Shown: positions 24,364-31,360 of the stretch, piece by piece
Position numbering within the stretch: the stretch's first letter is position 1
How the letters are laid out: every line of letters begins with the position of its first letter
Source: Colius striatus
Lineage: Eukaryota > Chordata > Aves > Coliiformes > Coliidae
Direction: 5' to 3'
Assembly: GCF_028858725.1 (NCBI RefSeq)
Contig: NC_084771.1
Location: forward strand, 2,632,915-2,696,914
DNA: 64,000 bases
Notes under the pieces: generated by a model
Told to the model about the DNA's origin: nothing
Database searches by the model: none
Seen by the model: the letters and a program-made list of their open reading frames with translations, nothing else
Position numbers and translations under genes: made by a program

Positions 24364-27300
24364 ATGTGGCCATTCTGGGGACTGGAGCTGAACAGAGCCC
24401 GCTGTGACCTGCTCTTCACAGAAGCCATCAACCAAAGGATGCAGGTTCCCAACAGGCTGAAGGTAGCAGAGAGCTTCAGCCCTGGGGATGAGGAGCCAGT
24501 GACAGAGGACATCCCTCCTTCCTTTAGGATGCACATCCCTGATAGGATTTCTCTTGCAGGTAAGGTTGTCTTTTGGGGTTGCTGAAGGCTGGTGAGGCTC
24601 TACAACATCTGAGGGAAGAGGATCTCTGGGTAAAGCCCCCAGTGGTTTGCTGTGCAAGGGGAGGAGACAGGGGCAGATGATGTAGTCAGCTTTCCTCTGG
24701 CAGGTGGGACAGGGTGGTGGATTGATGCTTGGGGAGAGGTGGGCAAAGGTGACAACAGAAGGGATCTTAGCTCCAAAAGGTGAGGAGCAAAATGTGGAGG
24801 TGTCTCCCTCCACATCTCTTACAATTCCCTCTTGGCCTTTGTTAGGCTCCCTGCTTTGGGATGCAGAGATCCCATCCCTGCCTCGTGGAAGAACAGCTCT
24901 GAAGCCCCATTTCCTGGAGCAGGGTGTCTCATTCTTTGTATACCATGGCCTGTGGGACATTGTGTTTGATGTAGAGCTGTTACTAGACACAGGGCTGGCT
25001 CTCCTCCTGGCCTGAGGACATTTGGGTTGGTTTAAAGAGACCTGGGGGGGAGGGTGGGGTTAATTGACAGCAGCTGAACATGAGCCAGCATCATGCCCAG
25101 GTGGGCAAAAAGGCCTAGGGCATCCTGGCTTGGATCTGAAATGGTGTGAGCAGCAGGGCCAAGGAGGGGATTGTCCCCCTGTGCTGGGCACTGGTGAGGC
25201 TGCACCTCCAATACTGTGTCCAGTTCTGGGTACAAGGACACTGAGGGGCTGCAGCATGGCCAGAGCTGGGGCAGGGGCTGGAGCACAAGGGTGCTGGGGA
25301 GGGGCTGAGGGAATGGGGGTGTTGAGCCTGGAGAAGAGGAGGCTGAGGGGAGACAGCAGCACTCTCTGCAGCTGCCTGAAGGGGAGTTGTAGTGAGCTGG
25401 GGGTCAGTCTCTTCTCTCCAGTGATGAATGACAGGACACAAGGAAATGGGCTCAAGTTCCCCAGGGGAGATTGAGATTGGAGCTGAGGAAGAACCTTTTC
25501 AGCCAGAGGGTTATTAAGCACTGGCACAGGCTGCCCAGGGAGTCCCCAGCCCTGGAGATACTCACAAGACACAGAGATGAGGTGCTGAGGGCTGTGGTTT
25601 AGCTCAGTGCTGAGCCTGGCAGTGTGAGCTGAGGGGTTGGGCTCGATCCTCAAGGTCTTTTCCAACCGAGGTGATTCTCTGACTCTAATGCTTCCCTCTC
25701 TCCTCTGCAGAAATATCAGATGCCAGTTTGAGGCCCATCCTGCTGAACCAGCAAAGGAAAGTGCCCTCTGTGCTGGTGCAGAAGAGCCCAGGCCTGGCTG
25801 TGCCCGGGGAGCTGCCTGTTCCCCACGCAGGCAGCAGATGCAGCGCCCAGAAACGCAAGCGCTCGGTACTGTGGGGACTGCTGGGGAGGGAAAGCTGCCC
25901 TGGCACTGGGTTTCTCCACAGGTCTGTTCCCAGCCCAAGCCAGAATTTGTCTTCCAGCATGCTAACACCTCCTAGGAGGTCCTGAGAGACCTAGGAGGGA
26001 GGGTGTAGGGGTGGTGGGATCTCTTTCTGTCCCATAGCCAGCACACACCTGCGTGCTGGGACATCACTCCAGCCAGATCTCCCACTCCATTTGTGGGTAG
26101 GATATAGGCTGAGGTGGGTGCAGTCCCCCCATGTGCTCCTTCTGCTACTCTTGAAGTCCCATCTCAACCCCTGTTTCTCCTGGATGAAGTATGCAATGGA
26201 GCTGCTTCATTACTGCAGCACAAAGGGCTCTGGTGTCAGAACTGAAAGCAGATTTTAACCCTGTGTGATATCAACCCAAAGAGAGACGCCCTGGCACAGG
26301 CAGACCAAGGCTTGGTTTGGCTGCTGGAGCTGCTCATCTGCCCTGTCAAGCACATTCACCTCCTTGAGATTCAAGGATCAAGGATTTGGATGTGAAGAGA
26401 GATCAGATCAGCAGGTTCCTTGCTGCTGACCCTCGTCTGCCCCGAGCCTGGCTCCCCACCTCCTTCAGCATCAAGCTCACCAGGCTTTGGGTTGCTGTGC
26501 TGCTCCTGAGTGCTCTCCCTGTGCTGACTGGCACTGCAAAGCCTGTGGCCAGGGGCTGGGCTTGTCCTGGGCAGGGGCTCTGCACTAACACCGTGTGTTT
26601 GATGCCAACAGGGTCATCACGGCAGCAAGTCACGGCGGGAGAGGCCTGGGGGTGACTGTGGCCAGCTGGCTGTGCAGAGCCAGGGCCAGCACTGTGAGCG
26701 GTGAGCACAAGCCCAGAGCTGCCTGGGCTGGGTGAGGCTCAGCATCTCCTGCTGTCTGGGCTGCTTTGATGCTCTCTGGTGTCAGTGCCCTGAGGTGGGG
26801 GGTGGTCTCCAGGTTGGGGCAAGGCGATGGTTGGCAAGTTCTACCCTTGTATAGGAGGAATGTGGCTGAGGGGTTTGTGTCAGGCAGTGCTGAGGGCAGC
26901 TGCCCTGGTTCCTAAGGTGATGAGCTCTTTGCTGAGATGCTCATGGGAGAGCATCCCCTCTGGCAGCAGCCCAGGAGCGCTCTCAGTCTTTGCCTGGCCT
27001 TTGGACCATGCTGCCTGCTCTGGCTCATCCTGGTCTCTTTGTCTCTGCCCACCTTCCTCTCAGTGGCAGAGAACTGGAGGCTACAGGCATGTGACCACTG
27101 TCAAATGAGGCACCAAGGCAAGGGTTGTGGAAACTTGCAGTGCCTTGCAGACAGGGTGGGCTCAGAGCACGTTTGCTTTTCATCTGAGGGTAGCTCATGA
27201 GCAGTGGCATGGTGACAGTGATCCTCTGCTCGTGGGCTCCAGAGTCTCTGCAGTGGAGAAATTGTCTCTGACTTAATCCCAGAGCAGAGCCACCTTTTCC

Positions 27301-30300: not shown

Positions 30301-31360
30301 ACCAAGGGATCCTCTCCTGCTGATGAAGGTGAGATCAGCCCTGTAACATGGATTTACCTGACTGGCTCTAAGGGTGATTTATCCAACACTCAGGGAATTC
30401 CTCTGGCTACAGGAGACTGGATGCTTGGTAAATACATTTTCTCTCTGTTGAGCCTCTAAAGAAAGACAAGCATTTGTTTTCCCTGTTGGCTGTCCTGTGT
30501 TTTGTTGGGATCACTCTGGGGTGTGTGGTGGAAGGGAATAAATACACAGACACTGTGGGTTCAGAAGAGGTGAGCAGATGCTGTGCAGGGGCTGTTTCCT
30601 CTCTCCTGGTGTGCTGCAAGTGGTGAGCAAATGCTGGGCACCTGCATGGCTGGGCTCCCCTTGGCAGGGCCCTGCATGGGGAGGCACTTGCATCTCCTGG
30701 GCATTGTTTAGCCTCCTGCATCTCTCTTTTGCTTCCCCAGCTCCCAGGAGGCTGCCCCAGGCCCAGAGAGCGCTGTGGAGGAGGTTGAGGTGGCTGAGAT
30801 GGCAGCAATGAAAAAGCAGGTGAGCTGGGAGTGAAGGGCTGCCAGGGGATTCCAGGGTGGGGGGAGCTCCAGGGCTCCTTGCTGGGTCCTGGTGGGCTGA
30901 TGCCCAGTGAGGGATGGCTGCTGCTGCTGCTGGAGAAGCAAGGGGGGGCTTACACCCGTCAAACCCCTACCCTGAGGAGTTGTAGGGCTACAGGAGACAG
31001 CCAGACCCCTCCATCTGCTGACAACAGAGGGCTCAGATGGGCTTCTGGTGGGGTGGATGTTTTCCTGCAGCATCTGCTCAGGAGCTGAGGTACTGCAGCT
31101 AATTCTCCCCCACAAAGACAGCTGCTGCTCTGGCAAAACTGAACCTTGAAAGGCACAGCAGCTCCCATCCCTTGCTGTCCCCTGCCTCTGCTGCAGGGCT
31201 CACAGTGGCCTCACTGCTCCCCTTGCAGCTGACCAGGATCTCGGGGCGGCTGCGTGTGCTGGAGGAGCAGCACAACGCCTGGAGACAGAAGGAGGCCTTT
31301 GTCCACTCCATGCTGCTCTCTGCCTGCCTCATCAACACCTGGCTCTGGCTGAGGAGATGA
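24364..31360 (+). CDS. FATE1: FATE1/MFF-family tail-anchored protein
   Basis: MFF recruits Drp1 to mitochondria; FATE1 is its mammalian relative at ER-mitochondria contacts. Coding exons are 24364-24559, 25711-25865, 26612-26700, 27601-27744, 30741-30819 and 31229-31360. Phases join without a stop to 264 residues. The N terminus (residues about 18-65: [18 protein letters not shown]...[11 protein letters not shown]) follows the MFF pattern (EGISQRMRVPEKLKV...MQVPERIVVAG). The C terminus [21 protein letters not shown] is the family coiled coil, closest to FATE1 (MRRQLYAVNRRLRALEEQ). It ends in a tail anchor, INTWLWLRR. Position between PRRG3 and CNGA2 is that of FATE1. The middle exons (26612, 27601) rest on phase, open frame and splice sites, not homology. 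The exon 2 donor, gtactg, is weak. It is either the FATE1 ortholog or an MFF paralog from which FATE1 arose. The symbol reflects position and the C terminus. Confidence 0.85.
25062..25688 (+). mobile_element. CR1 LINE fragment in the FATE1/MFF-like gene
   Basis: About 630 bp of CR1 3' region in sense orientation, beginning within the RT C-terminus and ending cttttccaaccgaggtgattctctgactct, the CR1 3' end. It finishes about 20 bp before the acceptor of exon 2 (25711), so part of that exon's polypyrimidine tract region lies next to the element end. It is 5'-truncated, frame-broken and inactive. Confidence 0.88.
25866..26611. other. Intron 2 of the FATE1/MFF-like gene
   Basis: Unique intronic sequence of 746 bp between exons 2 and 3. 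No further exon or repeat is recognised. Confidence 0.5.
26612..26700 (+). CDS. FATE1: Predicted exon 3 of the FATE1/MFF-like gene
   Basis: An 89-nt exon bounded by gccaacag and gtgagc. It reads [15 protein letters not shown]... in the phase demanded by its neighbours. It is basic, Gly/Gln-rich and low in hydrophobics. MFF has a basic stretch (RLKRERS...NGQLV) at the matching place, but similarity is weak. It could be skipped only together with a phase change, so if real it is constitutive or paired with exon 4. Confidence 0.5.
27601..27744 (+). CDS. FATE1: Predicted phase-2/2 exon 4 of the FATE1/MFF-like gene
   Basis: A 144-nt exon (48 codons, phase 2 on both sides), so it can be included or skipped without frame change. 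Acceptor gtgcaccccag and donor ccag|gtgact are good. It encodes [24 protein letters not shown] amphipathic sequence. MFF has alternatively spliced middle exons with a similar look (RGILSLIQSS...), but homology is not certain. Confidence 0.55.
28200..28625 (+). mobile_element. Two abutting CR1 3'-end fragments
   Basis: 28215-28500 runs from a CR1 3' region in sense orientation (gggagccctggcccaggctg) to ggttctgtgatcctgtg. It is followed at once by a second CR1 tail (about 28500-28620) ending ctgtgatcctgtgactctg. Both lie in intron 4 of the FATE1/MFF-like gene. The tandem arrangement may be one insertion into the tail of the other. Confidence 0.8.
29163..29402 (+). mobile_element. CR1 3'-end fragment
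   Basis: A 240-bp sense fragment from caagttccccagggcaggtt to ccgttctgtgaaatg. It is closely like the 3' half of the copy at 25.06-25.69 kb. It is intronic, truncated and inactive. Confidence 0.85.
29410..30735. other. Intron 4 of the FATE1/MFF-like gene, unique part
   Basis: Intronic sequence with no recognised exon or element. An AATAAA at 29480 has no obvious transcript to serve. The exon 5 acceptor tract (tctcttttgcttccccag) ends at 30740. Confidence 0.5.

What the first reader, a model, noticed from the sequence alone, without database searches (positions are those of the whole stretch)
24364..31360. Bird gene at the FATE1 locus with an intact MFF-like N terminus
FATE1 is best known as a mammalian X-linked cancer-testis gene with little left of MFF outside its C terminus. 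Here, between PRRG3 and CNGA2, a six-exon plus-strand gene keeps both the MFF N-terminal repeat-like motifs ([22 protein letters not shown]) and a FATE1-like coiled coil and tail anchor. It would be the intermediate showing that FATE1 descends from a duplicated MFF present before mammals and birds split.
Basis: partly seen in the sequence, partly recalled or inferred. Interest (0 to 1): 0.78.

Follow-up and report, generated by a model that had tools for sequence, protein, structure and literature searches.

The report
Bird FATE1, ancient MFF paralog
This bird gene appears to be the bird version of FATE1, a gene known from mammalian testis and tumours, and comparison with other vertebrates suggests it is a very old duplicate of the mitochondrial-division gene MFF that still carries the division-machinery binding motifs which placental mammals lost.

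Summary
Six GT-AG exons (24364-31360, +) splice to an intact 264-aa protein matching Pfam Miff end to end (E 9.9e-22), between PRRG3 and CNGA2 on the same strand. The same genome keeps a separate, ordinary MFF. All five introns have MFF's phases, four in the same alignment column and one two columns off, so it is a DNA-level duplicate. Trees place it with FATE1-type proteins, including mammalian FATE1, and not with its own MFF (p-AU 0.00016).

FATE1-type proteins also turned up in lizards, caecilians, paddlefish and, by sequence, cartilaginous fish. The gene shares a contig with a collagen IV pair, while MFF lies about 10 kb from another, as expected of genome-duplication products.

Both MFF motifs R1 and R2 are present in 0 of 57 mammalian FATE1 proteins, but in 91 of 105 bird and 44 of 45 other non-mammalian records. 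I infer a second tail-anchored Drp1 adaptor, whose Drp1-binding end placental mammals lost.

Databases already list the bird gene under mixed names. Expression, Drp1 binding and fish synteny are untested.

The parts
24364..24559 (+). Exon 1 (coding part), ATG to phase-1 donor; holds R1 and R2
   Evidence: MFF exon 1 of the same genome ends in the same phase and alignment column
24433..24465 (+). R1-like motif [11 protein letters not shown] (residues 24-34)
   Evidence: pattern counts; R1/R2 as minimal Drp1-binding region of MFF from a passage of PMC10057413; which letters are R1 is recalled
24529..24558 (+). R2-like motif [10 protein letters not shown] (residues 56-65)
   Evidence: which letters are R2 is recalled
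25711..25865 (+). Exon 2, phase 1 to 0
26612..26700 (+). Exon 3, 89 nt, phase 0 to 2 (MFF exon 3 is also 89 nt)
27601..27744 (+). Exon 4, symmetrical 2-2 exon (144 nt here; 54 residues in crocodile P0097), absent from shorter database isoforms; codes for a predicted helix
   Evidence: (P0097 against P0117)
30741..30819 (+). Exon 5, phase 2 to 0; start of the coiled coil
31229..31360 (+). Exon 6, 132 nt; coiled coil, tail anchor, stop (MFF last exon is also 132 nt)
31295..31351 (+). Tail-anchor segment [19 protein letters not shown] (residues 244-262)
   Evidence: hydropathy scan; alignment with MFF
17273..19050 (+). PRRG3, two exon stretches read (Gla 17273-17440; TM/C-terminal 18565-19050): upstream neighbour
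46038..47462 (+). CNGA2, long last coding exon: downstream neighbour

Best explanation
A bird ortholog of FATE1, intact as a gene. FATE1 is an ancient whole-gene duplicate of MFF, most likely from the early vertebrate genome duplications. The protein is probably a tail-anchored outer-mitochondrial-membrane protein. Shown here: open frame and splice sites, introns shared with MFF, locus shared with mammalian FATE1, kept R1/R2, predicted coiled-coil helix and tail segment. Inferred: its N-terminus binds Drp1 through R1-R2, its coiled coil makes oligomers, and leaving out exon 4 removes a helix to give a short form, so it acts as a second, separately regulated Drp1 adaptor beside MFF. In placental mammals R1-R2 are gone and the remaining coiled coil and anchor serve the known survival role of FATE1. 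Confidence about 0.95 for FATE1 orthology and MFF descent, about 0.75 for a duplication before jawed vertebrates, about 0.55 for Drp1 recruitment (lowered from 0.6 after the recount showed altered motifs in landfowl).
For: Intact spliced frame and full-length Miff match. Two Miff loci found in the genome, C14 (MFF) and C15 (this gene), 7 matches. Five of five introns share MFF's phase; four lie in the same alignment column, one two columns off. PRRG3 before and CNGA2 after it, same strand; in mammals a bat model carries a PRRG3 Gla domain fused to FATE1 and a gerbil FATE1 is named as PRRG3, which shows the same adjacency. In the last 62 columns 17 are shared by most sauropsid and mammalian FATE1 against MFF, 7 are sauropsid=MFF and 4 mammal=MFF. 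Tree of 43 chosen rows: the 32 amniote FATE1-type rows form one side of a branch, 100/98; mammalian FATE1 + MFF as a clade p-AU 0.026, and 0.0084 on a reduced set; window + own MFF p-AU 0.00016. FATE1-type proteins in lizards, caecilians, paddlefish and cartilaginous fish. Collagen IV NC1 at three places: C1, C14 about 10 kb from MFF, C15 with this gene. Both R1 and R2 in 0 of 57 mammalian FATE1, 91 of 105 birds, 17 of 17 turtles, 2 of 2 crocodile, 7 of 8 lizard, 9 of 9 caecilian and 9 of 9 fish records (records include isoforms of one species).
Against: No expression, localisation or binding data. Mammalian FATE1 is a very long branch whose place within amniotes changes with sampling, and the mammal+MFF test was named after the tree was seen. 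No shark MFF was retrieved, so the shark rows could be the shark's own MFF. The collagen IV pair on C15 lies about 17 Mb from the gene on a 23-Mb contig. 11 of 105 bird rows lack R1, 10 of them landfowl by name with altered motifs (RLTV for RLKV where the stretch was read). In the window protein the residue in line with the AMPK-target Ser155 of MFF is proline (read by eye).
Confidence: 0.8

Rival explanations
1. A recent bird-lineage copy of MFF (or a retrocopy) that happens to sit at this locus.
For: It is a Miff-family gene, and some bird copies are named 'MFF homolog A/B'.
Against: 21.7% identity (56 of 258) to the MFF of the same genome on the global alignment; five introns kept; window + own MFF as a clade rejected, p-AU 0.00016; turtles, crocodiles, lizards and caecilians have the same type.
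Confidence: 0.01
2. FATE1 ortholog, but the duplication is younger (bony-fish or tetrapod stem); the cartilaginous-fish proteins are the sharks' own MFF and not FATE1.
For: On the unrooted trees sharks sit between MFF and the rest, which fits both readings; shark C-terminal 58 aa are slightly nearer MFF (27-30) than turtle (25-27); no separate shark MFF was seen; PMC12141075 (passages) says the neighbours of COL4A3|4, MFF among them, are conserved in cartilaginous fish, and that shark gene could be the very protein found here.
Against: Shark N-terminal blocks are much nearer turtle FATE1-type (16-19 of 25) than bird MFF (9-11 of 25). MFF is nearly frozen between bird and human (56 of 58, human recalled) and so are the cartilaginous-fish proteins among themselves (52-58 of 58), so 27-30 of 58 between the two is hard to explain as orthology. 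The C14/C15 collagen linkage fits early duplication.
Confidence: 0.2
3. Ancient FATE1 ortholog that no longer recruits Drp1 and acts like mammalian FATE1 (anti-apoptotic, ER-mitochondria spacing) through its coiled coil and anchor only.
For: The C-terminal 62 columns share 17 FATE1-specific residues with mammals; human FATE1 localises to mitochondria through coiled coil and TM (PMC4660212 passage); landfowl have altered R1/R2.
Against: Both R1 and R2 are kept in 91 of 105 bird and 44 of 45 other non-mammalian records, and P31 L34 V36 P61 R63 of the turtle protein are invariant over 30 chosen sequences from shark to bird.
Confidence: 0.3
4. A decaying or mis-spliced locus, not a real gene.
For: No transcript data here; exon 4 is shorter than in relatives.
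Against: Open frame, six clean exons and whole-length conservation, with mean majority-residue frequency 0.78-0.90 per exon over 61 rows including the window.
Confidence: 0.03

Closest known systems
FATE1 (fetal and adult testis expressed 1), mammals
   Same: Neighbour of PRRG3; C-terminal coiled coil and tail anchor; 17 of 62 C-terminal columns shared against MFF
   Different: Mammalian FATE1 is mostly ~183 aa, matches Miff only at its C-terminus in the two examples scanned (profile 229-290 and 220-290 of 291) and lacks R1 and R2 in 57 of 57; the bird protein matches end to end
MFF (mitochondrial fission factor)
   Same: R1, R2, coiled coil, tail anchor, intron phases and (four of five) columns
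   Different: Separate locus about 10 kb from a collagen IV gene; 21.7% identity; the window gene lacks exons at the places of MFF exons 4 and 6 and has FATE1-type residues
Database entries 'mitochondrial fission factor homolog A/B-like' and 'fetal and adult testis-expressed transcript protein' of birds and reptiles
   Same: Same gene in other species, 43-78% identity among the 120 listed
   Different: Names disagree with each other; one crane model is fused to a reverse-transcriptase domain (P0202) and one turtle copy is named as a rho GTPase-activating protein (P0090)

Membership tests
Pfam Miff (PF05644) | Profile match above the curated cut-off | tested here: met
   78.4 bits against 23, whole length
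FATE1 | Position between PRRG3 and CNGA2, same strand | tested here: met
   mammalian PRRG3-FATE1 adjacency from P0151/P0162; CNGA2 on the other side in mammals is recalled
FATE1 | Groups with mammalian FATE1 rather than MFF | tested here: met
   (long mammalian branch)
FATE1 | Testis-biased expression | not testable with these tools
   no RNA data
MFF ortholog | Nearest to vertebrate MFF; COL4A3/4 neighbourhood | tested here: not met
   a separate MFF lies at C14 beside collagen IV NC1 matches; tree
Drp1 adaptor (works like MFF) | R1-R2 motifs, coiled coil, C-terminal anchor | tested here: met
   sequence and model level only: (turtle model)
Drp1 adaptor (works like MFF) | Binds Drp1 and drives fission | not testable with these tools
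   experiment needed
2R ohnolog of MFF | Lies on a paralogous chromosome segment | tested here: inconclusive
   one family (collagen IV) fits C14/C15/C1; IRS, glypican and KCNE searches did not complete

The most novel reading that the evidence does not exclude
FATE1, described as part of a late, mammalian-human network, is an MFF ohnolog from the vertebrate genome duplications. Jawed vertebrates began with two Drp1 adaptors of the MFF type; most lineages sampled kept R1-R2 in both, and placental mammals removed the Drp1-binding end from one and turned the rest into a survival factor.
Probability: 0.58. Interest if true: 0.72.

Novelty: new member of a known kind. Interest (0 to 1): 0.6.

Why it matters
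It gives FATE1 an origin and an ancestral job that can be tested: a second MFF-type Drp1 adaptor. It counters a reading that puts FATE1 in a network of late mammalian-human origin (PMC10380301, passage). It also explains why FATE1 resembles MFF only at its C-terminus: the rest was lost or replaced in placental mammals. If the bird protein recruits Drp1, birds and reptiles have a fission adaptor that placental mammals do not, and the bird and mammalian proteins become a natural comparison for how a fission factor became an anti-apoptotic tumour antigen.

Tried and rejected
Rejected: recent MFF copy, retrocopy, chance exons (see rivals). Recalled human FATE1 as query found mammals only (59 hits: 57 mammalian by name plus two short unnamed); it did not reach sauropsids, so orthology rests on locus, shared residues and tree, not on direct search. 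PDB by sequence gave nothing useful for this protein (two hits, best E 0.052). Rfam: no match in the window. Paper searches on FATE1 with MFF, paralog, evolution, birds, chicken, PRRG3/CNGA2 or gene duplication listed no paper that I could see to be about this origin; I saw titles and starts of abstracts only, and most subscription papers are not held. PMC5007562 (FATE1 at ER-mitochondria contacts) is not held; that role is from its title in a reference list and recall. The newt paper was a false lead: the one match is the word 'fate' followed by a citation number. A first C-terminal count failed from a wrong pattern and was redone. The first R2 count let the R1 site count as R2 and was replaced (birds: R2 104 of 105 became 101, both motifs 91). 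A count of R-x-x-S-[ED] does not sit on MFF Ser155 and is not used. No IRS, glypican or KCNE test of the paralogon could be done because the genome machine stayed busy.
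Full report
The gene. Six exons on + (24364-24559, 25711-25865, 26612-26700, 27601-27744, 30741-30819, 31229-31360) have GT..AG borders and give 264 residues and a stop. Pfam Miff matches residues 8-264 at E 9.9e-22. In the 60 relatives of 262-290 aa (of 120 listed) plus the window, majority-residue frequency per exon averages 0.78 to 0.90, highest in exons 1 and 6.

The locus. PRRG3 lies upstream (Gla domain, E 1.9e-19; 65 of 73 residues identical to the PRRG3 part of bat P0151) and CNGA2 downstream (best PDB sequence match is CNGA2, 881 bits, then CNGA3, 779), all on +. 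In mammals the same adjacency shows in database models: P0151 (bat) carries a PRRG3 Gla domain and a FATE1 tail in one protein, and a gerbil FATE1 (P0162) is named as PRRG3. That CNGA2 follows FATE1 in human is recalled.

MFF in the same genome. Exon 1 of the window gene finds one other place, C14:12.99 Mb. Reading six stretches there gives a complete MFF of eight coding exons of 181, 173, 89, 75, 159, 63, 85 and 132 nt. The Miff profile finds these two loci and no other at E<=10, with 7 matches (the tool scores only its best candidates). Window exons are 196, 155, 89, 144, 79 and 132 nt. Every intron of the window gene (five of five) has the phase of an MFF intron (1, 0, 2, 2, 0); four fall in the same alignment column, and the one between exons 4 and 5 falls two columns off in a loosely aligned stretch. 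MFF exons 4 and 6, both symmetrical 2-2 exons, have no counterpart. This is a DNA-level duplicate. The two proteins are 21.7% identical (56 of 258) on the global alignment.

FATE1 and not MFF. Of the last 62 columns, 17 hold one residue as the commonest in both sauropsid and mammalian FATE1 and another in MFF; 13 are shared by all; 7 are sauropsid=MFF, 4 mammal=MFF, 18 all different, 3 vary in MFF (109 of 120 sauropsid and 50 of 57 mammalian rows, the rest dropped because they do not end in the WxW tail; human MFF recalled). In a tree of 43 rows chosen by hand the 32 amniote FATE1-type rows, mammals included, stand against MFF, sharks, paddlefish and caecilians at 100/98. Mammalian FATE1 with MFF as one clade has p-AU 0.026, and 0.0084 without paddlefish and lizards; the window with its own MFF has 0.00016. 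Results against a clean picture: mammalian FATE1 sits on a branch of about 2 changes per column and joins lizards in one tree and a tinamou in the other, both without a star; that inner place is not to be trusted. Only two MFF rows were used, one from memory.

How old. A turtle query (102 hits, only proteins of about 225 aa or more) added lizards (8 rows), caecilians (9 rows, three genera), paddlefish (2) and chimaera, sharks, skate and ray (7). Rooted on MFF the order is cartilaginous fish, paddlefish, caecilians, amniotes, which is the species order. In the N-terminal block five cartilaginous fish share 16-19 of 25 residues with turtle and 9-11 with bird MFF; in the C-terminal 58 they share 25-27 with turtle and 27-30 with bird MFF. 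Both MFF (56 of 58, bird-human) and the cartilaginous-fish proteins (52-58 of 58 among themselves) change very slowly there, so I read them as paralogs; but no shark MFF was retrieved and the tree alone cannot decide. Collagen IV NC1 matches lie at three places: C1:59.3-59.5 Mb, C14:13.00-13.13 Mb, about 10 kb from MFF, and C15:19.6-19.8 Mb on the contig that holds the window at 2.63-2.70 Mb. PMC12141075 (passages) describes COL4A1|2 with IRS2, COL4A3|4 with IRS1 and MFF, and COL4A5|6 with IRS4 as early vertebrate duplicates, could not tell which pair gave rise to 5|6, and reports MFF kept beside the lost COL4A3|4 locus in amphibians, caecilian included. Taking the C14 pair as COL4A3/4 follows from MFF; taking C15 as COL4A5/6 rests on recall that PRRG3 and CNGA2 are X-linked with it in human. 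A FATE1 on that contig is what an ohnolog of MFF would show. It is one family, about 17 Mb apart; further families could not be tested.

What it does. A review passage gives the first 50 residues of MFF with R1 and R2 as the minimal region for Drp1 binding (PMC10057413). By pattern, both R1 and a separate R2 occur in 0 of 57 mammalian FATE1 records, 91 of 105 bird, 17 of 17 turtle, 2 of 2 crocodile, 7 of 8 lizard, 9 of 9 caecilian and 9 of 9 fish records (records include isoforms; which MFF letters are R1 and R2 is recalled; the mammals are all placental by name). Of the 11 bird rows without R1, 10 are landfowl by name (turkey, guineafowl, grouse, quail, pheasant), with RLTV or the like where it can be read, so landfowl may have weakened this end. 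Invariant residues over 30 chosen non-mammalian sequences include P31, L34, V36, P61 and R63 of the turtle protein. The turtle model (AlphaFold2, mean pLDDT 61) has helices at 18-27, 173-198 (exon 4) and 218-270 (coiled coil and anchor), with much of the rest below pLDDT 50. The 219-aa crocodile isoform lacks a 54-residue stretch in line with exon 4 (P0117 against P0097). Human FATE1 needs coiled coil and TM to reach mitochondria and shares 29% identity there with MFF (PMC4660212 passage). My mechanism is therefore a second tail-anchored Drp1 adaptor, made with or without a helix, whose Drp1-binding end placental mammals lost; Drp1 binding itself is inferred. In line with MFF Ser155 (placed as K-R-E-R-S from the SUMO motif in PMC11451547 passages) the window has P, the crocodile P, ostrich A, several birds and turtles T and two of three caecilians S (read by eye), so the stress switch of MFF is not kept intact.

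What is new. The bird gene is in databases, often as 'fetal and adult testis-expressed transcript protein'. The seven literature searches named under Tried and rejected listed no account of this origin or of the mammalian loss of R1-R2 that I could see.

Noticed in passing
P0076, P0079, P0095, P0096, P0101, P0108, P0114, P0115, P0118, P0119: The FATE1-type bird proteins without the R1 pattern are nearly all from landfowl by name (turkey, guineafowl, grouse, bobwhite, pheasant, quail), with RLTV/RLTM for RLKV where read; the Drp1-binding end may be decaying in that order.
   Followed up: partly
P0202: A crane protein named 'mitochondrial enolase superfamily member 1' joins a reverse-transcriptase domain (PF00078) to the exon 4-6 part of the FATE1-type protein; probably a gene-model error.
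   Followed up: no
P0151, P0162: Bat and gerbil models named as PRRG3 contain or consist of FATE1, hinting at PRRG3-FATE1 read-through transcripts or merged models.
   Followed up: partly
P0195-P0197, P0199, P0200: Caecilian FATE1-type isoforms carry an extra ~28-residue stretch with a NGGS motif at the place of MFF exon 6 (RPVLRGGS); it may be the lost MFF exon still alive in amphibians.
   Followed up: no
window 31745-32205, 33269-34765, 36955-39525, 2522-4013, 16030-16873: The window is packed with minisatellite arrays (units of 57, 40/76, 16/61, 42 and 13/51 bases).
   Followed up: no
window 59804-60243: Array of about 89 copies of the pentanucleotide ATGGA.
   Followed up: no
window 1208-1900, minus strand: Claudin gene in one open frame (PMP22_Claudin E 2.9e-21); by eye nearest claudin-2 (recalled), X-linked in human.
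   Followed up: partly
G000:C14 MFF exon 2, donor side: The MFF exon 2 donor in this genome appears to be GC (GAAGAG|gctagt) where the other six are GT.
   Followed up: no
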